DNA of 64,000 nucleotides from Styela clava (Eukaryota > Chordata > Ascidiacea > Stolidobranchia > Styelidae). Made by a program: the position numbers and the translations under genes. The notes beneath the pieces are model-generated. The model made no database searches. It was not told the DNA's origin and saw only the letters and a program-made list of their open reading frames with translations. This document shows, in pieces, positions 13,801-64,000 of the stretch. The stretch is from contig NC_135258.1 in the NCBI RefSeq assembly GCF_964204865.1, positions 21,417,083 to 21,481,082 of the forward strand, written 5' to 3'. Within the stretch, counting starts at the first letter, position 1; every line of letters begins with the position of its first letter.

Positions 13801-14940
13801 GACAAAATAGTCAACAAGACAATGAAAGTACACGAACAAGTGAATTGGGTCCGCAATGTGATGAAAACTGTAGAAAATATGGACATAGCGACAACTGCTG
13901 GATGCCATCACCAACATCAGGTATGTTGCTGTGATTTTCAGTTGCTTCAAAGATATATATTTCCGAATACCTTCTCGAAAGTAAAATGAAATGTAATATG
14001 CACTACAAAACTTTATATATATATATATACGAAATAACTGAGATGAATTATTTTTGCACATTCGACTTTCTTTAACAACTGTGGAAATGTCAAGTTTGAA
14101 TTCCACAACGTACTTTTTACAGAATTTATATATATATTTTTAGATTCCTACTACCCTTCGAAATTACGTTTTGGAATGACCGCATCAACCCCACAACTCG
14201 ATCATCCTTCATATTTTGACAACGACGGAATCGATCGACGAAAAACTGAATACCCAACTTTGCAACACTTTCCTAAAAGTACTGGATATTATCAAGATCA
14301 ACCCGATTATTACAGGACAATGTCTCCTTCTTTCAGACAGACGCCAGAACAATACTACCAGCACGGTTATGAAAGCGAATTACAGCCTATTGAAGAAATG
14401 ACGCCTTTGAATCCACCGGTAGCCTATCCTAACCACGTAAACTATGATCCAGATGATGTTAGCGCGCAGACTCATCTCACGCTATCAACGTCACCCAGGC
14501 ACCAAGATGAAGCCACAGACAATTTTGCTCGCGCGTCTTCACGTTCTAGTTTAGCATCCTCAAGAGATTATTCCCACCATCAGCATTTTGCGCCACAAAA
14601 CCAACCGCGATGGGACTCCAGGTATTACAATCCTCCGCGCGTACAACGAACCCCAATTCACAGCAGTCAACCAGACTTTCAAAACCAAAATTTCCGCCCC
14701 GCAACGTCACCTATTCCGCGAATGACGTACCCAAGATTGTCGTCAAGTTCTTCAGAAAATTCATCTAAACTAAGTATCTCGACCTCACTGAAGGTTCCAT
14801 CTGCGCACAGAATACAAACGAGTTACCCCACGTCCTATAGTTATTACCCCATTCAGGATGTTAATCAGGGGGGCACTGTGTCTATCCAAGAAGCACAAGA
14901 CATTGTCAGCGATATTGATAATTTACTTTTAAATCAATAA
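7832..14940 (+). CDS. Non-clustered (delta-2-like) protocadherin, 19 coding exons
   Basis: Single-pass adhesion receptor of the plasma membrane that would bind through calcium-rigidified cadherin repeats. Coding exons read by hand with GT/AG borders and matching phase: 7832-7949, 8139-8368, 8616-8793, 8875-8988, 9137-9270, 10048-10271, 10390-10535, 10653-10781, 10867-10999, 11242-11419, 11532-11675, 11787-11960, 12228-12419, 12692-12898, 13019-13170, 13281-13392, 13545-13653, 13768-13920, 14144-14940. They join to about 1,207 codons. The ATG at 7832 opens a signal peptide (residues 1-22, hydrophobic core MALLLM). Repeat-border motifs follow: DVNDNPPIF (about 136), DANDQDPVF (247), DVNDNAPI (360), DINDNSPIF (483) and DVNDNRPVF (601), so six cadherin repeats. 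DRE/DHE motifs are also present. The membrane helix is at 736-760, then a basic stop-transfer run. The tail has SGRGDSDSEAG (about 873) and the Cys-Cys-GHSDNCWMP motif (about 923-940), both typical of delta-2 protocadherins (PCDH10/17/18/19). The last exon is Ser/Tyr/Gln-rich. Family is firm; the orthologue is not. Confidence 0.9.
9271..10047 (+). other. Largest protocadherin intron (intron 5)
   Basis: 777-bp intron, several times longer than the other introns in this gene (most are 80-280 bp). It starts GTTAGA and ends in a pyrimidine tract plus CAG. It contains no coding motif, but its size suggests an old insertion. I could not identify terminal repeats. Confidence 0.6.
13277..13296 (+). 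promoter_or_regulatory. Two in-frame 3' splice acceptors, 15 nt apart
   Basis: The intron before protocadherin exon 16 offers AG at 13279-13280 and again at 13294-13295. Both keep the reading frame. The upstream choice adds five residues (SFSNF-type) to the cytoplasmic tail. Either could be the normal site; transcripts would decide. Confidence 0.5.
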
Positions 14941-17525: not shown

Positions 17526-18866
17526 AGTGTTCTTCAACCTTTTTTACCGTGGTATACCTTTTAAAATTTTTCAAGAACTTTGTATACCATACAAATATCA
17601 ATGTTTATTCAAGACTCAAATAAACATTAATTTTTATGCACGAATTGAAAACAAAATTAAAACTCACGATACTGCAATATCAACATGCAATCTAATGGAC
17701 TAGTGTCCGCAAGTTGTACGGTTGTAATAAAGGCGGTGCGATCCCAGGCGCCAACCGGTTTCTATAGGGCTGTGTATACTCAGTGGCAGCTTTCAAAAGT
17801 AGAAATCGACGATGCGTAAATTTGTAAACAGAGTCCAATCAAACCAATTCTCAAAAATTTCGGGTATGTGGAATTAATAGATAAGTAAACCACCTTTGTG
17901 ATATTTTAGTTGGGTTTTAAGAACAATGTTAAAACAACAGTGTGCAACATGCAGGACAAGTTTTAGTTGAGCAGGACTAGTGTGAGACAAGCGGGAACAT
18001 GTGGGACAAACAGTAGTATTTATTTAAAATTTAATTAGGCAGGCATCATACTCTAATCTAATTCGGGCTATGCTTGTAAATTCTGACCAAAAATGCTTAA
18101 ATGTGTTGAAATAATCAATTGACACAAATTGTTATTATGGCATGCAAATGGGAAAAGCGTCAAGCATTAGCTATCAACAGCCAAGCAAGTACTAACCGAG
18201 CTCGATGTTGCTTACTAGCTACTAGGATGAAAATAAATTGAACTCAGCTCCATGTTAACAATAATGAAGTTCTATACTTGAGAGTCTTAAAATAACCAAA
18301 TAGCTATGCATCCATATTGGTGATCCCTGGAAATAGATCCGTATTTTTAACTACGTCGCTGGAAAGCTGCCCAGTGCAACGGGAATACTATTTCCACTCA
18401 AATTAATTTCTCACAATGCCACCCCTTCAATTGTTCTATTTTTATCTTTTTTATTCATATTTGCAGTATGGTTATGGGTAGTGCAGCAACAACTCTCCTT
18501 TGAAAGTTAGAAGTTTTACAAACAAAAAAAGCAGTTTGAGACATTCGCAATACGCCATTTCAATCTATCTTCCATGACAAAGATGTGGAATAATTAAATT
18601 TGTCCATATTTGTGGATTCGAGATATTGAAATACATGTACTAAGTCTAAGACAAACTGACAATGACATATACTGAATGTTTCCGAAGCAGGGTTTTACTC
18701 ATTGTTACTCCAGTAGATCAGCTTCAATTCATATCACAAGACACTCATCAAGAAGAACTCGGAAATTCATGGAATACGTGCGTATAAAGCCATGGTATGC
18801 TAAAACTAAAAATATTGATTCTTGGCCCATTTCAAAAGAGTTTTAACAAACAAGTTAGTTCTGATC
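17526..18866. other. Unassigned intergenic DNA
   Basis: A hAT-like start (TTCTTCAACCTTTTTTACCG) at about 17528 has no partner that I could find. The rest shows no coding motif or clear repeat. Confidence 0.4.
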
Positions 18867-19500
18867 GAGCGTCTTCACGTTAGAGTTTGAATCTGGCATC
18901 CTCAAGAGATTATTCCCATCATCAGTTCGTTGTACTCGGTTGGTTTTGCGCCCCAAAACCAACCGAGATGGGACTTCAGGTACTACAACCCCCGCGAGTA
19001 CAACGAACCCCAATTCACAGTATCCGCTCCAAATTTTCAAAACCAAAATTTCCGCCTCGCAAAGTCACCTATTCTGTATCCAAGACATCAAGTTCGTCAG
19101 AAAATTCATCTAAACCAAGTATCTCAATCTCACGGAAGGTCCCACCTGCGCACAGAATACAAACGAGTTAGCCCACGTCCTATAGTTCTTACCCAGTTCG
19201 AGATGTTGAACAACGGAGGGAGGGGGCGTTGGGGGGCTCCAAGAACCACAAGACGTTGTCTGCAATATTGATAATTTACCTTTGAATCAATGACAAAACT
19301 AAAAGTATATTTATTCACAGTAAAATTTTTGTATTTTTAAAATAATTGTATAATTCTGCATAAAGGATATTTTACACAAAGCCATACCCGTCTGAATCGT
19401 GCAACACAAATATATATATATATATTCATTTTCCAAGACGACGACTGTTTACATCGAAATACTTGAATATTAACTTTTTTGGGTATTATATAGTTTACAA
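18867..19500 (+). pseudogene. Decayed duplicate of protocadherin last exon plus 3' UTR
   Basis: Aligns by eye with 14531-15156, the end of the protocadherin coding region and its 3' UTR. Shared anchors include the ASSRDYSHHQ block, the APQNQPRWD block, QNQNFR and the AHRIQTS block. Frame is lost several times: an inserted stretch near 18925-18945, indels around 19060-19080, a stop in the block after AHRIQTS, and a G-rich insertion near 19210. The duplicate ends near 19500, where a LINE relic starts. It is a dead copy that gained no new exon. Confidence 0.85.
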
Positions 19501-31298: not shown

Positions 31299-33484
31299 CA
31301 AGCTGTCGGGATTTTATGCAACAAGTATTACAACGCTGAATATACGATTACCAAAGAACGATCGCATTAAAATTTGGAGGATTTCGACGCAAACGACAGC
31401 ACCGGGTGCCTGCAGATATACGCTAGATATGTCAATATTTTAAAAATGTTTTGCCAATCAGGGGATTACACGAAGCACCTTAAAGTCGATAAAAATCGAC
31501 CAAAAGCAAACATTTTCTCTTAAACGTTTTTCTCAATATTTCTGAAAGTTATTCTCAGTCGAATACCCTCAACTTCTGATCGGCGACTATCCCACTACGC
31601 GAATAAAACATCTCATACCAAAACTGATTCGAAATTATCGGATAAGTAGATTTACAAAATGTGTATAAGGACAATCTCACACAAGGTATCACTGAACAGC
31701 AAGCATTTTGATCACCTCAAAAGAACATATTTTAAAGAGACAAAGTTTTCAATTCCATACAGAAGCAATTTCCAGACGCTAGTCTGCGCAAAGTGAGAAA
31801 AAAGACACTCCGCGTTTGATACCTTCATTATGAGTCGAACTGCTTCACTTGAATGACAACGAAACTTAGCAAAATTGAGCACGGTAAATCCAACTGCTTC
31901 AAAACAAACATGTTTTGATAGAAAATTCGAATTCTTCCTACAGTATATAAATATATATATTCCAAACGAATGGAACAATTTGACAGGGGGTGGCGCGGAA
32001 TCAAACAAAAAATGCGACTTCATAACTGAAAGTGTTTAATTTATCTTGTCCTGTCCTCCGCTGATTGATGTTTAGCTATTTATTAGCTTTCCATTTCATT
32101 CTCACTAAAGTGTTTCCGAAATCAAATTTTACACAGCACACATCAATTCAGGTTTAGACGACTAAGGACTGTGGTCTCGCGTGACCAGGAAGATACCCAT
32201 AAAACGATTACGAGGTGACAATTAAAGCTGAAAGCAGTTAGCAGCGGTTCGGTATATGTAGCACAACATCGTTCATGCCGACACTTAAGCTACAATTTTG
32301 AAGTTCAAACCACTTTTACAATAATTACCATTCTCCCTAACCAGTAAAAAGTTGTTAAATGACCCATTGGAGGGTCAAAGCACGCGAAAGTCCACGAATG
32401 CAAACTCCATGGATGCAAATGTATACTGATGCTAAAATTCGAGGTTCAAAAGTATGCAGATGAAAATATTCTAGGTGCAGTTTAGGAGTGTAACTGTGCT
32501 GTCATATCGTTCTATCGGGCATAAACAATAAAAACCCACTTGTGCATGATGACGATTCTATTAATAAAAGTAAATTAGTAAAGTAGATACATAGTTGAAA
32601 TTAAACGCAATAAAGAAAAACAAAACTAGCTCATAGAATAATACGAAGAAATGAAATTAGATTGTTTCAATTGGACGGCAATGCCAGTTATATCATGCTA
32701 GTGCTCCAAAAATGGATGAGATTCATTCATTGATAGGGGTGACACATAATCATATAATGCACAAGGTAAATTTCATGAGCCCAAATTAGTGAATATAACC
32801 GGAAGTAATAAAATACTTGATACGGCTGTTCAAGCAAGAAATATATGTAAATAGGAACACCATGCAATGCTGAAATAACCAAAAAATAACGAACAGGAAC
32901 TCATACATGATACAGAACGATTAGAAACTTCAAATTAATAGGGTAATGTTGATCATTAGATAAAATATACAATGTAGTAAAATAATAAATCATTAATGAC
33001 GTTTCTTCTATACATTTCGCATTAATTAATACAGCGGAAGCATGTTTTGTTATTAGCACCACAACTTAGAATTGTCAACTTTTACCCATGGAAGCAACAT
33101 AATCTTATCTTGGTTGATGCTTTAGATTAGTAACATTGTTCATAATGATATTCTCGTATTATAAGTTTTTTCAATTGCAACTATTCAAGCAACAGCAATT
33201 ATGAATATACTTCATTTACCTAGACTAGCTCATTCTCATCAAATCAAAAATATTACTTTTATTGCATGATTTAAGCGGTGTGAATAAGATGTTATTTCAC
33301 CAGGAGATGGGCAGTATATTATCCCACAGTTCATTCTCATATTAATGTAACCTGTAACGTAAGTTGTTACGTCATAAATGCATAAGGCAGGTAATCATTA
33401 TATCAAACATTTTGATAATATGAATACAAAATTAAAGTTTCTACAATGTTGAATTTAAAATATGTTAAAATTATTACTATATAT

Positions 33485-33494
33485 TTTATTTATT
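33485..33494 (-). terminator. Candidate poly(A) signal for the kinase gene
   Basis: Overlapping AATAAATAAA on the minus strand, about 325 bases past the stop codon. Assigned by position only. Confidence 0.4.
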
Positions 33495-33815: not shown

Positions 33816-36398
33816 TTATGTTATCTTTTCTAATTGTTCGGGCTTGATTCCATAACTTTTTCCTTCTCCGAAAGTTACTATCACATCAAAATCATCGTCA
33901 ATTCCTGCAACTACACCAGTTTTCGTCAGTATGTCTACCTTCTCTTCAGAAATTTCAAGTAGTTTGCAAACATGTCTAACTTTGTTCATTGACATGTTTC
34001 TTTCATTATTTAGATCTTCTATCTTCACACGAACTTTATCACCTATCAGAAAGGGAGGCACGTACAAAGGTGGCGGAACAGAACCATCAGTGGATGTGAT
34101 ATCGAGAACCGCAGGATTGAATGTCCATTTGTTTCCAGTGTCAAAGAGAACTTGTACATTATGAGATCCATCAAAATCCTTAACTTTGCCAGTTAAACCA
34201 TATACCTCCAGCATCTGGTAGCACCATCCGCCATGACCTCTTTGCATCTCTATCATTACATCCAAGGGAAGATGAACACGCACAACATCACCAATGGCAA
34301 ACTCGCGGCGATTTATTTTACTCTCAACTACCAATTTTGCGTGTTTCTTCATTTCATCTTTATGGTTTTTAAATCGTCGTATTGCTTCGTTTTCAGATAA
34401 TTTAGTAATTGCAGCTGGATTGAAAACATAACAGCATTTTGAATTGTATGCAACAAAGGTTCTTCCGTGATAATCAGCATAAACTAACTTCCCAACTCTG
34501 CCTTTCAGACTTGACATCTCACTGTTCCACCCTCCGCTCCACTCTTGTAACTCTCGCATGACATCTTCTTCCATATCATGACAGACATAATCACCAATTT
34601 TTATATTGGGATTATCACGGAGACATAACTCTTCAAGGTCACCAGGACCGCTTGTCTTGCATAATACATCTGGATTGAATCGAAAGTACAGTCCATTCTT
34701 ATAAACTGCCAAAATGTCACCCTCTTGCAAGAACCTGAAAATAAGCCCAGTTTGCTTGAAAATGTAGTCCATGTCATTCACCCATCCTCCATGATCTTTC
34801 TGCATTATCTGTACAATCTCTTTGTCCAAAGTGACACAGACAAGATCGCCAATATGAAAATCACTTTCTGATGGAATCTTAACTAATGAACAAGAATTAA
34901 AGCGGTGGCTTTGAACACCTGAAAATGACACTGTAACATCACCATTGTCTTCAACTTTCTTTACAATTCCGATCATATCTCTCAACTGTAACAAAGAATC
35001 ATTCCAACCACCATGTCCAATTTGAGCATTTTTTATGGCAGCAACATCAGTAATCATTCTGACATTATTTCCTTCACGAAGATAGGGGTCAGCAAAGCTT
35101 GCCTCCAATTCCCTAATCCCAGATGGGGACTGGGGATTGGTCGGTTGAGTTGCGGAATGAATTGGAGGACCAGGAATTTGCATATTCCTCATCCTGCTCG
35201 ATAATTCATCAACAGGCTGCACAGGAAAAGATCTTGATAGCTGGGAAGTTGAAGGTTGAGGTTGTTGTTGTTCTGAACGTCTAAATGGGGGATTTGCTTC
35301 AGGTGAGACAGTATGCCATCTTGATTGATGTGGACGGCATACCTCTATTGAGGGATTAGATTCATAATGGCGAAACTTCTGCAGAACACCAATAGGATCT
35401 TGTGGCATGCCACCTCTTGAAAATGCAGGCATTTTACTTTTTAAATTATTTACATCCTGTGACATTGTACTATCAAGAATGTTTCTTAATTCTACATGTA
35501 ATCGAGCACGCACTTTATCCATTGGAAGCCTTTCCTTCGGTTCGGTTTTCCAACAATTTTCCATCAAATCAAAGAAACAGTTAAGTATACTTTGGTCTAC
35601 AGCAATATGTTTCTCTGCTAGTTCAGTTTTAATCTTTTCAAGCCCCTCTCTTGGTCTCTGACCCCCTTTCACACAATGCTCGATCAGATGAGGAGGAACT
35701 GCTCTAAATGGCTGATTTCGGCTGGTAACAACATACATCACTATTGCAAAACTGTATATATCCATATATGGGGTGCGTTTCCCATCCAGCTGACCGAGAA
35801 GTTCGGGTGCTGCATGGCTCAGTGTATACTGAATTAGGCCATCATCCGGTCTATATGAACCCGACCTAGACATTTCGGCCGTTGCTCCTGTATAACTTGA
35901 TAAAGTAGATCCTCCAAAATCAGCAATTTTGGCATGAAGATCGGCACTTAAGAGAATGTTTTCAGCCTTCAGATCGCAATGAATAAATCTTTTATCTTCA
36001 GAAAAGTTGTGGAGGTAAGTCAATGCTGAGGCTGTCTCAAAAAGGACACGAAGTCTGACAGTCCATGGAATTTCTATGTTGTGACTTGTTAACAAACTTG
36101 CTAGATCTCCAAACGGCATGTATTCCAGGACCAAACATACAAATCCACCCTGTTGGGCAATACCATGCAAGCTCAAAATATGTGGAGATGAGTTGGCTTT
36201 CAGATGCATTAATCCTTCTTTATTAAACGAAGTTATAGGGTTTCTACCACATTTCTTGAGAACTTTGACAGCAACATCCCCATGTGCATGATGGTAGCAA
36301 CGAAAAACAGTGCTGAATGTTCCTTGTCCCAAATACCCCTCTGAGTCCTTCCGAGAAGTATACAATGTGTCATATGAGATAGCAGGAATTTCTGCCAT
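33816..36398 (-). CDS. RIPK-like protein kinase with C-terminal Mind bomb/HERC2-type repeats
   Basis: 860 residues in one uninterrupted frame, ATG at 36398. The kinase domain spans about 9-310: glycine loop GQGTFSTV (24-31), catalytic Lys45 in VAVK, alpha-C Glu61, catalytic loop HCDLKAEN (140-147, HRD changed to HCD with Asp142 kept) and IADFGG with Asp160. All catalytic residues are present, so it should be active. The fold and the PELLG-like motif resemble RIPK/TKL kinases. A Gln/Pro/Ser-rich linker (about 315-455) follows. Then come at least four repeats centred on HGGW, HGGW, SGGW and HGGW (about 461, 537, 622 and 724), each ending in an FNPA-like motif, plus a degenerate fifth. These match the SH3-like repeats of Mind bomb ligases. 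No ankyrin or RING domain is present. Plant KEG also joins a kinase to HERC2-like repeats, but with RING and ankyrin. Role inferred: cytoplasmic signalling scaffold. Confidence 0.88.
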   Translation of the reverse strand: MAEIPAISYDTLYTSRKDSEGYLGQGTFSTVFRCYHHAHGDVAVKVLKKCGRNPITSFNKEGLMHLKANSSPHILSLHGIAQQGGFVCLVLEYMPFGDLASLLTSHNIEIPWTVRLRVLFETASALTYLHNFSEDKRFIHCDLKAENILLSADLHAKIADFGGSTLSSYTGATAEMSRSGSYRPDDGLIQYTLSHAAPELLGQLDGKRTPYMDIYSFAIVMYVVTSRNQPFRAVPPHLIEHCVKGGQRPREGLEKIKTELAEKHIAVDQSILNCFFDLMENCWKTEPKERLPMDKVRARLHVELRNILDSTMSQDVNNLKSKMPAFSRGGMPQDPIGVLQKFRHYESNPSIEVCRPHQSRWHTVSPEANPPFRRSEQQQPQPSTSQLSRSFPVQPVDELSSRMRNMQIPGPPIHSATQPTNPQSPSGIRELEASFADPYLREGNNVRMITDVAAIKNAQIGHGGWNDSLLQLRDMIGIVKKVEDNGDVTVSFSGVQSHRFNSCSLVKIPSESDFHIGDLVCVTLDKEIVQIMQKDHGGWVNDMDYIFKQTGLIFRFLQEGDILAVYKNGLYFRFNPDVLCKTSGPGDLEELCLRDNPNIKIGDYVCHDMEEDVMRELQEWSGGWNSEMSSLKGRVGKLVYADYHGRTFVAYNSKCCYVFNPAAITKLSENEAIRRFKNHKDEMKKHAKLVVESKINRREFAIGDVVRVHLPLDVMIEMQRGHGGWCYQMLEVYGLTGKVKDFDGSHNVQVLFDTGNKWTFNPAVLDITSTDGSVPPPLYVPPFLIGDKVRVKIEDLNNERNMSMNKVRHVCKLLEISEEKVDILTKTGVVAGIDDDFDVIVTFGEGKSYGIKPEQLEKIT

Positions 36399-37239
36399 GA
36401 TTTCAACATTCGAACAAGTTATATCATTTGATTACAACTTTTTCAAAATATCCATAGCAGAGTTATCTGAATAAGCCTCCAAAATTTAGAACTTTCTTTA
36501 ATTGAGATAAATACAACTGCTATGTAACCAATTTTGCTAAATCGTGATGCTAGAAATAAAAACAAATTCATTTAAATATGGTTGCTTCGGTGGAACTTGG
36601 GGGAGATGAACTTTAAATAACCTTTGAGAAGCTAAAAGCTATACACGGATTCACTAAGGGCCTTGACGATTAATAAAAGTTGACTTTACCCAGAAGTCAA
36701 AATTTTCTTAACCTGGATCATTTCATGGAAGGCATAACTAAGAGTTAAGATTGTAGTCGAATGGAAATTTTCTCCAGCACTTCAAAGCCTTACCACTGTG
36801 ATATGTACATATTCATCCTGAACTGGAGAGCTAGGTAGTCTGGAGCGTGTCATTTTGTACCTCTAAGCTGGGCTCAGATCCGGCTCCATAGCCTTCGAGT
36901 TTTTTTGTGAAGTTTTTTTAAAATTGAACGTTAACTTTTTTTGTACAAATTTACATTGAAACTTTTAAATTACGGTATGTAAAAAATTCAATCCAAAAAA
37001 ATATTATAAGCTGGAGGATGGATTTTATTATGTTGTGTGATCTTTTAAAAAATTATAAAAACAAAACTGATTAGGAGCAAAAGCCAGAAAGCCACTAAAA
37101 TTTCTGGTAGCTCCGGCTCCATCTATTACAGTAAGCTTGGCTCTGACTCCGATTCCATATATATTTGGAAACATTGCTTTGCTCTTGTGTTTTGTCAAAC
37201 AATGAATTTGTATTTTGTTCCAAAGCTAAAAATATATTC
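36399..37239. other. Kinase 5' flank and unassigned repeat-like DNA
   Basis: About 36850-37170 has GATCCGGCTCCAT and AGCTCCGGCTCCATC blocks in one stretch, suggesting a decayed repeat. No coding content. Confidence 0.35.
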
Positions 37240-45542: not shown

Positions 45543-48500
45543 CTATTTGTTAGAAGATGACAATTTACCATCTTCTTCCACTTTCCACAACATTAGTTTC
45601 ATGCATGCTGAGGCATCCTCTGTACTGTCATGCCCTTCACCAGCCATATTTTGTATGACCAGACCCAGAAATTCTGAACAGAGAGTTCGAAGTGCACGCT
45701 TGTATGGGAAACCCCTTTTATGGGGAAAAACAACAGAAGTGTCAATTACTGTCTCATGAATGATTCGTAGAGCGATGAGGTCACTTTCAAGGCTGTGACC
45801 CATTAATATTGTGTCTGCCGAAAATTTTGATAAGAAAACAGCTTGTACATCTCTGATTGTCGTTTTCACATTTGTCATATTGTCTTCGGTTATACCACTC
45901 CATCTTGTGTTATAATCCAGAACTCTCCCACTTGGTTTAACGAGAGTGTCATATATCAATTCACAGTTTGTATCTAGAACGCTTACACGAATCAACTCCA
46001 AACCATTAACGGTATATGACATCTCACAATCCAATGTAAAAATACCAGCATTCCCATCAGATGGAGGTGACTTCATCAATGTCCTAACATAGCCAGATCT
46101 ATCTAATTTGTTGTCTGCATGAACGTGGCTATCACCAACAGTACAACCTTCAGAACCAATTCTTTCTTGGCAGCATGAATATCTTTTCTCCCAACCTCGC
46201 CCTACACGAGTCATATATGCCCTTCCCCAATGATGAACACATTCTTCTTCATGAGCAAAATTACCTTTCTTGTCAAGAAAGAATTCTTTGCCACAGTGGA
46301 CACAAACCTTTTTACTTGTGTTGTTAAAAGGCTTATGCGGTGGGTCGCATTTAAATTCAGCTTTACCTGGCTCATCACAAGGTCTAGGATAACCATTTTG
46401 ATCTAATTGTTCTGGTGTTAAAATATAACGACACATTGTTTCATACAAATCTGAAAGTGTCAATTTTGATTTTTGCTCTCTCTTTTCAATGGTATACCCA
46501 CCTTTACATTTCTTGGTATTGGTATCAAGAAGTCTATCATGTGACATGACTCTTTTGGATTTTTCATTGCTAGTTTGAGAAATTCTATCAGCTTTCTTGC
46601 TGATGCGTTTTTGTGATACAGTTTCTGTGTTTTTTTGTTCAGTTATATTCTTTACTTCACATGCTGGCTTTTCGCGAAGCTTTTTTAGTGTACTCGCTGC
46701 GAGGCTCAGGTAAATATTTTTAGTATTACTTCTCTTTTTAATTTGCTCCTCTTCCATTTGTGCCATAGCATATGCTTTTTCATGATTGTTGTTAAATATT
46801 CTCAAGCATTCATCAATAAAAGTAGTCAAGTATCTTTGCCTAATATTTGTAGGCACTCTACTATATCTATCAACACCAATTCTTGGACGAGATGGTATTA
46901 CATTTCCATTTTTAGTGACAATTGTATCCTTCGATTGGTGTGCAACTCGAGAAACACCCTTTGTAGCGGTCCCGCACACTGTTGGTTCTTCTTTCTTTCC
47001 AGGATACCAAGGATTCTGCTCTATTTTCTTTTCATATTTTGCTAAAGAAGTCATTGGTTTAACTGAACTGTTGATGTTCTTTGCCAATGAAGCCATTTGG
47101 CCACTTAATTTATGTGCTACCCTCGAAGAGCTCGTGGATGTCTCCTTTGTTTTCTCTTGTTCCAAAATTTTGAGACGCTCCATCATTTGCTGAGCGGGAG
47201 TTGAAATTCGCTTTCTGGGAACTAATGGCTTCCGAAGTGAGACTGCTGATATTGAAGCATTAACATGAGCAACTCTGCGCTTCCCTACTGTTGCAGCACT
47301 AGTTTCCTCAACAGTTTCTGGTTTAGTCGTACATTCGATGGACGTATTTGCACTATCTTGCTCATTAGCACTGCTATCACAAGACCCACCCGATTGTTCT
47401 ACCTCTATTGAATCTTCTTGAAATATTCGCAAACACTCTTCGTATCTGTCTCCATTTTCAAGGTCTTTTTCAAGTTCTTTTATCTCATCTCGATCAATAT
47501 AGGTGGCAATATCAATATTTTTGGATGTCACAATTCCATTTTTCTTTTTCATTGACTTCACACCATCTTTGTCTTTTTTTGACATGTTGGGTGACATTTT
47601 ATCATTTTTATTACCAAGCCCACCTATCTTTTTTTTCTTTAAAGTGGAATTTTTATTCTGCTTTTCTATTGTACATTTTGAAGTTATACCAACAACATTT
47701 TTATTACCAGATTTTAAAATTTTAGAAGTTTTATCTGTGGTTGATTTTTTATTTTTCACCTTCAATTTTTTGGATCTTTTTGAAATACTTTTTCGCAATA
47801 TTTCGTCTGATTCATTCAATTCATTAGGATATGTTTTCTTGCTCTCTAAAAAAACAGAGTCATCATCATATACACTTTCATGAACAACACTAACAAAGGA
47901 ATATTCAGATTCCCCAGAATTTTTAATATCAGATGATTCGAATAAAGGTTCGTCCTCTTGGTTTACTTCAAGATCTTCGTTTATCACAAGACCATCTTCA
48001 TCTGCACCTTCATCATTCAGCTCTATTCCGAACTCAGAATATTTATCAATTTTCGATTTCTTATATGAAATTTTAACGTCTTCGCTTGCTGGGTGATTTC
48101 TTTTTTCGGCATTTGAGAGCTTTCTATTTTCTAGAGTAGATGTGCTGTAATTTACAACAGGGTCATATTCCATATCTGTGATGGGTTGTTGAGAATTCAG
48201 TTGATAAATATTTTTTGATTTGTATTTTGGACGTATTTTCTTTACTTTCTTACTTGCTCCCTTTGCGCCATGCAAAACGGATTTCATTACTGTTTCCTGA
48301 CAGTAATCAATTGAATGTTTAGAAGATGTCACACTTGGTGTGTAAAGATTAGCTGCGCTGGTATGTTCATTATATGATAAGTACAGTTCTGGAGTATACG
48401 ACTCATTTATTATAGGATTATACTCATCAATGGATAGTTCACCATTACCAACCCCACTCCCGATATCAGACTTTAGCTTTTCTATAGCATCGTTCACAGA

Positions 48501-48665
48501 TTCTATTGTAATACTCGAATTTGTTACGTTTGCAGCAGAAGTTGAAGGTGCAGCTCGTTTGCTTGGCAATTGATGACGAAAAGGGCAATAAGAACGGGAG
48601 CATCCTTCGCCTCCAGCCTCCGTTGGGCATTCGATACCACTGAAATAACCAGCTGCCTTCAGCAT
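45543..48665 (-). CDS. REXO1: RNA exonuclease 1 homologue
   Basis: 1,040 residues in one exon. I start at ATG 48665 (MLKAAGYF), because REXO1 proteins begin this way and the frame above it opens only on TTG. It starts with a CCCH-like finger: Cys13, Cys22, Cys27, His31. The middle (about 60-700) is low-complexity and Lys/Ser/Glu-rich, including a KPLVPRKRIS basic patch. The C-terminal third has the REXO1 zinc-binding segment CVHCGKEF...ECVHHWG (about 790) and the DEDDh 3'-5' exonuclease domain: FTLDCEM (about 877), GHSLESDL (about 956) and HDSTEDA (about 1014). All five catalytic residues are present. In vertebrates REXO1 is a nuclear protein that binds elongin A; the family trims RNA 3' ends. 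Length is close to the vertebrate protein. A coding region without introns is notable beside the intron-rich protocadherin. Confidence 0.93.
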   Translation of the reverse strand: MLKAAGYFSGIECPTEAGGEGCSRSYCPFRHQLPSKRAAPSTSAANVTNSSITIESVNDAIEKLKSDIGSGVGNGELSIDEYNPIINESYTPELYLSYNEHTSAANLYTPSVTSSKHSIDYCQETVMKSVLHGAKGASKKVKKIRPKYKSKNIYQLNSQQPITDMEYDPVVNYSTSTLENRKLSNAEKRNHPASEDVKISYKKSKIDKYSEFGIELNDEGADEDGLVINEDLEVNQEDEPLFESSDIKNSGESEYSFVSVVHESVYDDDSVFLESKKTYPNELNESDEILRKSISKRSKKLKVKNKKSTTDKTSKILKSGNKNVVGITSKCTIEKQNKNSTLKKKKIGGLGNKNDKMSPNMSKKDKDGVKSMKKKNGIVTSKNIDIATYIDRDEIKELEKDLENGDRYEECLRIFQEDSIEVEQSGGSCDSSANEQDSANTSIECTTKPETVEETSAATVGKRRVAHVNASISAVSLRKPLVPRKRISTPAQQMMERLKILEQEKTKETSTSSSRVAHKLSGQMASLAKNINSSVKPMTSLAKYEKKIEQNPWYPGKKEEPTVCGTATKGVSRVAHQSKDTIVTKNGNVIPSRPRIGVDRYSRVPTNIRQRYLTTFIDECLRIFNNNHEKAYAMAQMEEEQIKKRSNTKNIYLSLAASTLKKLREKPACEVKNITEQKNTETVSQKRISKKADRISQTSNEKSKRVMSHDRLLDTNTKKCKGGYTIEKREQKSKLTLSDLYETMCRYILTPEQLDQNGYPRPCDEPGKAEFKCDPPHKPFNNTSKKVCVHCGKEFFLDKKGNFAHEEECVHHWGRAYMTRVGRGWEKRYSCCQERIGSEGCTVGDSHVHADNKLDRSGYVRTLMKSPPSDGNAGIFTLDCEMSYTVNGLELIRVSVLDTNCELIYDTLVKPSGRVLDYNTRWSGITEDNMTNVKTTIRDVQAVFLSKFSADTILMGHSLESDLIALRIIHETVIDTSVVFPHKRGFPYKRALRTLCSEFLGLVIQNMAGEGHDSTEDASACMKLMLWKVEEDGKLSSSNK

Positions 48666-49036
48666 TTTTTCATTCAAGTATGTTACCTACACAGCTGCAC
48701 CAATAACAAGCTCTGAACAGCAAAGAATTTTGTTAGAATCTATTCCTAATATTTGAATTTTGATGGAAATCTTACAATTTAAATAAGTTTGGAATGTTTT
48801 TCATACTTCATACCTGCCCAGACCAGCATACAGTTTGCAGTTTGACTAAGTGATGATCTGAGATTAGTGAAAGTCTACCTACCGACATTTGGCAGAAAAT
48901 TACAGAATTATATGCTGATATGATAGAGCAAATTACTGGGTAATTAGATTTCATAAAAAATCGAGCATGAGCGATATGAATACTGTTCCTTAGAGCAAAG
49001 ATTTCCATCCTTTTTTGAACCATGAAACACCTATAA
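48666..49036. other. REXO1 5' flank
   Basis: No coding content recognised. The frame at 48808-49101 on the minus strand overlaps a MITE end and is not a gene. Confidence 0.5.
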
Positions 49037-59591: not shown

Positions 59592-60527
59592 ATGGGTGTT
59601 GATTACTATTCTGTGTTGGGTGTCACTCGTAATGCTACAGATAGTGACATCAAAAAAGCTTATCGCAAACTAGCTTTGAAATTTCACCCAGATAAAAACA
59701 AAGAGCCAGGTGCATCAGAAAAATTCAAGCAAATAGCAGAAGCGTATGATGTTCTGGCTGATAATAAGAAGAGAGCTACCTATGATCAGTTTGGTGAAGA
59801 AGGCTTGAAAGGTGGAATTCCATCGGATAGAGGGGGATTTACCAATGGGTATACTTTTCATGGCAATGCGGAAAAAGTTTTCAGAGACTTTTTTGGAGGT
59901 TCAAATCCATTCGCTGATTTGCTAGGAGAACCTGATATAATGAATGCATTTGGAGGAATTCATGGGAGAGGGAGAAAGAAGCAAGATTCACCTATTGAAA
60001 GAGAACTTCATTTGACATTAGAGGAAATCTATCATGGATGTACGAAAAAAATGAAAATCTCACGGAGGGTTATGAATGAAGATGGGCACACTTCTAGCAT
60101 TCGAGACAAAATCCTCACCATCAACGTTCGTCCTGGATGGAAAGCAGGAACCAAGATCACTTTTCCACAAGAAGGGGATCAAGGTCCAAACAATATTCCG
60201 GCTGATATAGTTTTTGTCGTTCAGGACAGGCCCCACACTTTATTCAAACGAAGAGGTAATGATTTGGTATATGTTGCAAAGATACCACTCGGAAAAGCAC
60301 TTATCGGGTGCAGCATTGAAGTACCCACACTCGATGGCAGATTTTTGAACATACCAATCAATGACATCGTTCATCCAAAATATGAAAAAGTTGTACCCAA
60401 GGAAGGAATGCCTTTTTCTAAAAGACCATCAGAACGAGGGAATATGGTGATTGAGTTTGATATTCAATTTCCAGAAAAGTTGACCCCAGAAAAGAAACAA
60501 CTTATACGGCAAGCACTTCTGGTTTAA
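59592..60527 (+). CDS. DNAJB13: DNAJB13-type Hsp40 co-chaperone
   Basis: 311 residues in one exon, ATG at 59592 ([10 protein letters not shown]). The J domain spans 1-70, with HPD at 33-35 and [20 protein letters not shown] after it. A short Gly-poor linker follows, with [16 protein letters not shown] and [17 protein letters not shown]. The linker lacks the long G/F region of DNAJB1/4/5. GRGRKKQD and [10 protein letters not shown] mark the two C-terminal beta domains, and [11 protein letters not shown] and [14 protein letters not shown] close the protein; these are DNAJB13 signatures. DNAJB13 is a radial-spoke protein of cilia and sperm flagella in vertebrates. The human protein has HPL instead of HPD and is thought not to stimulate Hsp70. 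This one keeps HPD, so it may retain J activity. It is in a different orientation from its neighbours. Confidence 0.92.
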
Positions 60528-63195: not shown

Positions 63196-64000
63196 TAGGG
63201 ATGTAAGTTTCGAATATTTTTTTTTTCGAATCGAATACCGAATATTTTTTTTTCGAATCGAATATTTCCGAATCGATTCTGATTAATACAACATCACTTT
63301 TTCTTTGACTTTATTCAACACACACAAGGTTATTTTTCAGTAAACACGCATATTAATACATGCACGCATAATAATGTTCAATTGAGGTGAACAATAAACT
63401 AGCAATCATTCACTGCTGCATCAAACTTCGGTTGCAGTGCAAGAAGTTTAACTCATTTACGTGTGTACCACTGAGTCTGGTTCTTAATCTGGAAACTGTC
63501 AAACCAGCAGAAGAGAAGGCTCTCTCCGCTGGTGCTGACGTACACGGTATAGCCAAGTACCGATTGGCCATTTTGTGTAGGGATGGAGAATCAGTTTTTC
63601 GGGCATGCCACCACAATAATGGGTTTAACCGCTCTGTATTTCTGTCCAATTTCTCTTTCAAGTACTGTGAAATTTCCTCCGACACTTTAGATGCATATCC
63701 TTCCGATTCAGACGAGCTTGACTGTTCAATCCCTATCGAAAAGAGTCCTTGGAGAGAATTTTGTTCCACCTCTGGAGCAGTAACCGCAGAAGGTTCAACG
63801 TGTATTTCATCTTGTATTTCTGGCATTGAAGCTTCAGTGGCTTCCATTTCTAGAGAAACTCTGACCTTGAAACACAAAAAAAAAATATTATATGGGTTTG
63901 TACAAGTCTATAAATGATATGAAAGGGATAATGTTAGTTGAACCACTTGTATAACTCACACAATGAACAACAGAATCCAGAATACTACCAACACATGTAA
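63196..64000 (-). mobile_element. hAT element with open transposase C-terminus, cut by window edge
   Basis: The outer end starts TAGGGATGTAAGTTTCG, then TTTTTTCGAATCGAATA repeats. The minus-strand coding frame from about 63867 down to 63410 reads uninterrupted. It includes an acidic lead, PLLWWHARK, then YLAIPCTSAPAERAFSSAG and SRLRTRLSG, then NELNFLH, which is the hAT C-terminal dimerisation domain (ZBED1/Ac-type). A possible 3' splice site (TTTCAAG) lies just above at 63867. The remaining exons lie beyond 64000. No break is visible in the part shown. Confidence 0.85.

What the first reader, a model, noticed from the sequence alone, without database searches (positions are those of the whole stretch)
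33816..36398. Kinase fused to Mind bomb/HERC2-like repeats, without ankyrin or RING
One open frame joins a complete RIPK-like kinase (Lys45, Glu61, Asp142, Asp160 all present) to four or five repeats each bearing a GGW motif and an FNPA-like end, as in Mind bomb. In Mind bomb the repeats bind Notch ligand tails ahead of ankyrin and RING domains. Here a kinase takes that place. Plant KEG joins kinase and HERC2-like repeats but adds RING and ankyrin. This could be a signalling adaptor that phosphorylates proteins recruited by the repeats. The RIPK likeness is by motif only.
Basis: partly seen in the sequence, partly recalled or inferred. Interest (0 to 1): 0.75.

Follow-up and report, generated by a model that had tools for sequence, protein, structure and literature searches.

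The report
RIPK-like kinase fused to Mind-bomb repeats
One uninterrupted animal gene joins a cell-death-type protein kinase to five copies of the docking module that Mind bomb uses to grip Notch ligands, an unusual pairing that may aim the kinase at particular partners.

Summary
Window 33816-36398(-) is one uninterrupted 860-codon frame. Residues 21-296 are a protein kinase with its catalytic residues in place; residues 441-860 are five Mind bomb SH3 repeats (Pfam SH3_15), each above the curated cut-off on its own. Pfam shows no ankyrin, RING, ZZ, MIB_HERC2, death-domain or CARD match.

Two corrections. The repeats are Mind bomb REP repeats, not HERC2-like: repeat 4 models onto the MIB1 REP crystal structure (TM 0.92, 1.1 A), while HERC2 scores E 0.16. 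GGW is in four of five repeats, FNP in three.

RIPK likeness, "by motif only" before, now has sequence support: RIPK2, RIPK1 and RIPK3 are the best solved relatives; it is a non-RD (HCD) kinase. No tree was possible.

The same genome (376.6 Mb) also shows two MIB-like loci, seven standalone SH3_15 genes with no kinase in their frames, and 24 other kinase matches; no second fusion appeared in the searches made.

Best reading: a RIPK-type kinase whose usual death-fold or ankyrin tail is replaced by REP repeats as docking module. Ligands and expression are untested. Plant KEG is an analogue, not the same architecture. No eukaryotic protein database could be searched, so rarity in other animals is unknown.

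The parts
33816..36398 (-). Uninterrupted ORF, 860 aa: kinase - P/S/Q-rich linker - five SH3_15 repeats
   Evidence: longest frame in 50 random versions of the window 175 codons
35511..36338 (-). Protein kinase domain, residues 21-296 (K45, E61, H140-C141-D142, N147, D160-F-G)
   Evidence: PF00069 1.1e-36; RIPK2/1/3 best solved relatives; residues
35085..35438 (-). Linker, residues 321-438, rich in Pro/Ser/Gln, five PxxP motifs, no Pfam match
34875..35078 (-). SH3_15 repeat R1, residues 441-508
   Evidence: 48.5 bits, cut-off 24
34650..34859 (-). SH3_15 repeat R2, residues 514-583
   Evidence: 38.8 bits
34395..34604 (-). SH3_15 repeat R3, residues 599-668
   Evidence: 28.5 bits
34092..34301 (-). 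SH3_15 repeat R4, residues 700-769; 47% identical to MIB1 REP repeat 1 over 64 aa
   Evidence: 59.5 bits; identity; AF2 pLDDT 91.1; 4tse TM 0.92, 1.1 A
33819..34052 (-). Divergent SH3_15 repeat R5, residues 783-860, without GGW/FNP, with an insertion of about 8 residues
   Evidence: 28.9 bits; insertion; groups with repeats 4 and 5 of the standalone genes, support 0.947
36432..36434 (-). In-frame stop (TAA) 12 codons before the ATG
36550..36551 (-). Possible 3' splice (or trans-splice) acceptor AG after a T-rich stretch in the presumed 5' UTR
   Evidence: one of 11 acceptor-like sites listed there, pattern only
33489..33494 (-). AATAAA polyadenylation-type signal 321 nt after the stop (a second one at 33258-33263)
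   Evidence: pattern only

Best explanation
The locus encodes a non-RD kinase of the RIPK type with intact catalytic residues, whose C-terminal recruitment module (death domain, CARD, RHIM or ankyrins in RIPK1-5) is replaced by a tandem of five Mind bomb REP-type SH3 repeats. SHOWN: the joined frame, the kinase motifs, the RIPK affinity among solved kinases, five repeats by profile and the MIB1 REP fold by model for one of them, and no Pfam match to RING, ankyrin or MZM. INFERRED: the repeats bind short linear motifs in partner proteins as REP does in MIB1, the flexible linker lets the kinase reach them, and docking concentrates or clusters the kinase for autophosphorylation and phosphorylation of the docked partner. 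It should not ubiquitylate by itself, having no RING.
For: Domain hits. RIPK1-4 make up 32 of the first 33 rows of the 60 shown of 638 solved-chain matches. Catalytic residues and non-RD HCD. The repeats' solved relatives by sequence at E<=1 are 2 distinct sequences, both MIB1; the R4 model fits 4tse at TM 0.92. Frame intact over 860 codons. In MIB1 the REP domain binds the C-box of JAG1, and in-vivo genetic data support REP-Delta C-box binding (PMC11887331, passages). The KEG repeats alone pulled down a client kinase (GST-KEG-H with MAPKKK18), though so did the ankyrin-containing fragment (PMC11020294, passages).
Against: No expression, ligand or activity data. REP's C-box-contacting residues were not compared. 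The kinase could not be modelled (single-sequence AF2 pLDDT 36.4), so its fold rests on profile hits. R3 and R5 pass the cut-off only narrowly. The closest kinase match in the same genome is 31% identical, so orthology to a named RIPK is not shown. A RIPK survey found RIPK1-5-clade sequences in no invertebrate except amphioxus (PMC9573974, section 14), and a sea cucumber study found RIPK1-4 mainly in vertebrates with three non-vertebrate exceptions (PMC11507063, passages); so a true RIPK1-5 member here would be unusual, and 'RIPK-like' is the safer word.
Confidence: 0.55

Rival explanations
1. Mind bomb/RIPK cross-talk: the repeats compete with or bridge to MIB1/MIB2, so the protein is a RING-less decoy or modulator of Notch-ligand or death signalling, with the kinase phosphorylating MIB clients.
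For: Human MIB2 directly binds and ubiquitylates RIPK1 (PMC5912950, passages). Drosophila Mib1 lacking MZM appears dominant-negative in a REP-dependent way (PMC11887331, passages); the window protein is likewise REP without MZM. Two MIB-type loci sit in the same genome.
Against: MIB2 binds RIPK1 through MZM and through RIPK1's linker, not through REP, so the fusion does not copy that contact. No shared ligand has been shown.
Confidence: 0.2
2. Scaffold use: the repeats and linker oligomerise and the kinase domain is mainly structural.
For: Non-RD catalytic loop; RIPK-type kinases often act as scaffolds (recalled).
Against: K, E, HxD, N and DFG are all intact.
Confidence: 0.12
3. Animal counterpart of plant KEG that has lost RING and ankyrin repeats.
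For: KEG also joins a kinase to SH3_15 repeats (PMC11701565, passages).
Against: RING and ankyrin have no match.
Confidence: 0.04
4. Artefact: two neighbouring genes run together, an assembly join, or a decaying retrocopy.
For: No intron in an animal genome whose window also holds transposase remnants.
Against: One frame through kinase, linker and repeats with no stop. Long uninterrupted frames are not unusual here: five of seven standalone SH3_15 genes of this genome show a single frame of 497-757 codons, and REXO1-like and DNAJB-type genes in the window do too.
Confidence: 0.05

Closest known systems
MIB1/MIB2 (Mind bomb E3 ligases)
   Same: Tandem SH3_15 (REP) repeats with the same fold; R4 47% identical to MIB1 REP repeat 1
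   Different: No MZM, ankyrin or RING match; five SH3_15 repeats instead of the two in human MIB1; an N-terminal kinase (PMC11701565, passages)
RIPK1-5 (receptor-interacting kinases)
   Same: N-terminal RIPK-like kinase, linker, C-terminal module (layouts from PMC9573974, section 14 and passages)
   Different: The C-terminal module is MIB repeats instead of death domain, CARD, RHIM or ankyrin. The amphioxus RIPK table, made with SMART, lists ANK, LRR, Roc/COR, DEATH, Zalpha, ZU5, ARM and one N-terminal SH3, but no Mind bomb repeats; whether SMART could have shown SH3_15 I do not know
Plant KEG (KEEP ON GOING)
   Same: Kinase and SH3_15 repeats in one polypeptide (PMC11701565, passages)
   Different: KEG also has a RING and ankyrin repeats; 7 SH3_15 (ECOD) or 12 'HERC2-like' repeats (PMC11020294, passages) are counted
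Zebrafish ftr97
   Same: Several SH3_15 repeats and no ankyrin (PMC11701565, passages)
   Different: RING domains instead of a kinase
Standalone SH3_15 genes of the same genome (7 loci)
   Same: Window residues 505-860 align along one of them (L012) at 25% identity, 4.8e-17
   Different: No kinase in their frames; most have a further C-terminal region without a Pfam match

Membership tests
RIPK1-5 kinases | Kinase domain closest to RIPKs | tested here: met
   32 of the first 33 PDB rows are RIPK1-4 (RIPK2 98.5, RIPK1 97.3, RIPK3 92.7, RIPK4 75.6 bits); next row a plant lectin kinase, 71.3. Exception: a 678-aa chain labelled EGFR (9p9u, 96.6 bits), unexplained. Solved chains only
RIPK1-5 kinases | Catalytic residues intact | tested here: met
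   K45, E61, D142, N147, D160
RIPK1-5 kinases | C-terminal death domain, CARD, RHIM or ankyrin repeats | tested here: not met
   No such Pfam match at E<=0.01; no [IVL]Q[ILV]G tetrad
RIPK1-5 kinases | Placement in a kinase tree with animal RIPKs | not testable with these tools
   No eukaryotic protein collection on hand
Mind bomb (MIB1/2) | SH3_15/REP repeats | tested here: met
   5 of 5 above cut-off; R4 fold TM 0.92 to 4tse
Mind bomb (MIB1/2) | MZM (MIB_HERC2-ZZ-MIB_HERC2) | tested here: not met
   no hit
Mind bomb (MIB1/2) | Ankyrin repeats and RING fingers | tested here: not met
   no Pfam hit; no match to one RING-type Cys/His spacing pattern
HERC2-type repeats (PF06701) | MIB_HERC2 profile match or HERC2 fold match | tested here: not met
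   no profile hit; HERC2 9l8y E 0.16, TM 0.63 by query length (R4 only)
KEG | RING, kinase, ankyrin and SH3_15 together | tested here: not met
   only kinase and SH3_15 found

The most novel reading that the evidence does not exclude
An animal RIPK-family kinase wired by REP repeats to the Notch-ligand/Mind bomb machinery: it docks on the C-box of Delta/Jagged-type tails, or on other MIB clients, and phosphorylates them. One polypeptide would then join two pathways that in humans are linked by MIB2 binding RIPK1.
Probability: 0.15. Interest if true: 0.75.

Novelty: new variant of a known kind. Interest (0 to 1): 0.45.

Why it matters
RIPKs share a kinase and differ by their other domains. A Mind bomb REP module in that place did not turn up in the papers seen here, and it would give a direct test of whether REP repeats are general peptide-docking units outside E3 ligases. 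The MIB2-RIPK1 link in human death signalling makes the pairing suggestive. The genome also holds a family of standalone SH3_15 proteins of unknown role.

Tried and rejected
HERC2-like naming: rejected. KEG membership: rejected (no RING or ankyrin match). Simple 'MIB2-RIPK1 interface fused' reading: rejected as stated, because MIB2 uses MZM, not REP. Kinase structure: single-sequence AF2 was unusable and was not searched. Relatives by DNA patterns: IMG/VR 1 pattern match, 0 confirmed; GTDB contigs 2 pattern matches, 0 confirmed, as expected for an animal gene. tRNA and Rfam (gathering threshold) scans of the window: 0 hits.

Rows left out: the repeat tree used 6 of the 7 standalone genes (L002 left out) and lacks repeats 3 and 4 of the C6 gene, whose anchor was not found; the profile used the same 6.

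Literature, 10 of 10 searches used: no title or abstract listed reported a kinase joined to Mind bomb repeats in an animal. Several listings were capped (20 of 4,062, 25 of 171, 15 of 1,306, 10 of 1,824, 15 of 36 papers). Papers opened: passages of PMC11701565, PMC11507063, PMC11887331, PMC11020294, PMC2394772, PMC5912950, PMC7815719; passages and section 14 of PMC9573974; PMC4177888 was searched for six terms with 0 hits. Most subscription journals are not held and UniProt/InterPro could not be searched, so a database entry with this architecture may well exist.

Not reached: architecture of the other kinase matches of this genome (for example C2:19691205, 31% identical, ORF 373 aa) and a genome-wide MIB_HERC2 count. 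One unchanged request for 20 stretches was sent, and the MIB_HERC2 search at 67, 82, 87, 93, 100, 102 and 111. All were answered 'busy'. A kinase-only search of the own genome was also busy.

Full report
WHAT IS THERE. The frame at 33816-36398 on the minus strand runs 860 codons from ATG to stop without a break, with an in-frame stop 12 codons upstream. In 50 first-order (dinucleotide) random versions of the window the longest open frame was 175 codons; this one is 871 stop to stop. Two AATAAA signals lie 321 and 552 nt after the stop, and a T-rich acceptor-like AG, one of 11 such sites listed, lies in the presumed 5' UTR; these are patterns only.

KINASE. Pfam gives Pkinase 1.1e-36 at residues 21-296. 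Lys45, Glu61, His140, Asp142, Asn147 and the DFG at 160-162 are present; the residue before the catalytic Asp is Cys, so it is a non-RD kinase. Against all PDB sequences the kinase region gave 638 matches at E<=1e-10, 60 shown. Of the first 33 rows, 32 are RIPK1-4: RIPK2 98.5, RIPK1 97.3, RIPK3 92.7, RIPK4 75.6 bits. The exception is a 678-residue chain labelled EGFR with two matching stretches (9p9u, 96.6 bits), which I did not resolve. The next row is a plant lectin kinase at 71.3. This is stronger than 'motif only' but is not a tree. Against a strict RIPK1-5 label: a survey found no invertebrate sequences in the RIPK1-5 clades except from amphioxus (PMC9573974, section 14), and a sea cucumber study found RIPK1-4 mainly in vertebrates (PMC11507063, passages).

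REPEATS. SH3_15 (PF18346, Mind bomb SH3 repeat) matches at 6e-50 with five stretches. Scanned one by one, 5 of 5 exceed the 24-bit cut-off (28.5 to 59.5 bits) and none matches MIB_HERC2 at E<=10. The solved relatives by sequence at E<=1 are two MIB1 sequences, 4tse and 4xi6. AlphaFold2 on R4 with the other four repeats as its alignment gave pLDDT 91.1. Foldseek puts it on the MIB1 REP structure 4tse at TM 0.92, 1.1 A and 43% identity; HERC2 comes at E 0.16. GGW is in R1-R4 and FNP in R2-R4. R5 lacks both, carries an insertion of about 8 residues, and groups with repeats 4 and 5 of the standalone genes (support 0.947, in a small tree with weak deep nodes and some repeats left out). The linker (321-438) is Pro/Ser/Gln-rich and has no Pfam match.

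THE REST OF THE GENOME. The window lies in an unnamed assembly of 376.6 Mb in 379 contigs. An SH3_15 search gave 16 rows; the same search over 14 control genomes gave none. Three rows belong to this gene (of its five repeats). Eight belong to seven standalone genes, on C13 (2), C10, C6 and C1 (3). One is a broken-looking copy on C6 (L015). Two each lie on C8 and C19. Two exons each of the C8 and C19 loci match MIB_HERC2, beside SH3_15 exons, as in Mind bomb genes; a putative ankyrin exon on C19 gave no Pfam match, and RING was not looked for. Of ten ORFs from these loci scanned against Pfam, eight gave SH3_15 only, two gave nothing, none gave a kinase. Five of the seven standalone genes show one frame of 497-757 codons; the two on C13 show two overlapping frames each, cause unknown. 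Each locus held is only about 3.2 kb, so more distant exons were not seen. Searching the whole protein against the genome gave 26 rows, from 53 scored of 81 candidates: this gene, one standalone SH3_15 gene, and 24 rows confined to residues 10-419 (kinase and linker), one of them with stops inside, the best 31% identical over residues 10-326 (C2:19691205). I did not classify those kinases. No second place joined both parts; the tool warns that counts are lower bounds and that it ignores introns.

HOW IT MAY WORK. Shown: domain make-up and intact catalytic residues. Inferred: docking through REP repeats, followed by phosphorylation of or with the docked partner. Support by analogy: REP of MIB1 binds the C-box of JAG1 and, by genetic evidence, of Delta; Mib1 without MZM appears dominant-negative in a REP-dependent way (PMC11887331, passages). 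The KEG repeats alone pull down MAPKKK18, as does the ankyrin-containing fragment (PMC11020294, passages). Human MIB2 binds the linker of oligomeric RIPK1 directly and ubiquitylates it, but through MZM and not REP (PMC5912950, passages), which counts against a simple fused-partners reading. MIB2 also ubiquitylates cFLIPL, binding it through its N-terminal zinc finger (PMC7815719, passages), again not through REP.

COMPARISON AND NOVELTY. Kinase plus SH3_15 is known in plant KEG, with RING and ankyrins (PMC11701565, passages). RIPKs with varied partner domains are known, especially in amphioxus, but Mind bomb repeats are not among those listed (PMC9573974, section 14 and passages). None of the listings of the ten literature searches showed this architecture in an animal. 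I therefore rate it a new variant of a known kind, with the caution that protein databases could not be searched.

Noticed in passing
L002-L005, L007, L011, L012 (own genome C13, C10, C6, C1): Seven standalone SH3_15 genes; five show one long frame, the two on C13 two overlapping frames. By eye six of seven share a C-terminal region (after a DVGPPNYV-like stretch) without a Pfam match; the L012 frame ends before it.
   Followed up: partly
L015 (own genome C6:2743986-2747114): Broken-looking copy of a standalone SH3_15 gene (by eye), about 23 kb from the one at C6:2.722 Mb.
   Followed up: no
Own genome C3:5546503-5548371: Two kinase matches inside one 749-codon frame, a possible tandem kinase.
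   Followed up: no
window 14047-14940 and 18865-19271, + strand: ORF downstream of cadherin-like exons; a degenerate partial second copy of it lies about 4 kb further on (read by eye).
   Followed up: no
window 45543-48677, - strand: 1044-codon frame with EloA-BP1 domain (4e-35), REXO1-like by eye, mostly one exon.
   Followed up: no
window 59592-60527, + strand: Uninterrupted DNAJB-type gene (DnaJ 3.2e-28, DnaJ_C 4.4e-40).
   Followed up: no
window 63410-63907 (-) and about 22.9-24.2 kb (+): Transposase remnants: hAT dimerisation domain 3.3e-18 at 63.4 kb; ZBED/hAT-like frames at 23 kb by eye.
   Followed up: no
PDB chain 9p9u_A: A 678-residue chain labelled EGFR matches this kinase as well as RIPKs do, in two stretches; the label may not describe the whole construct.
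   Followed up: no
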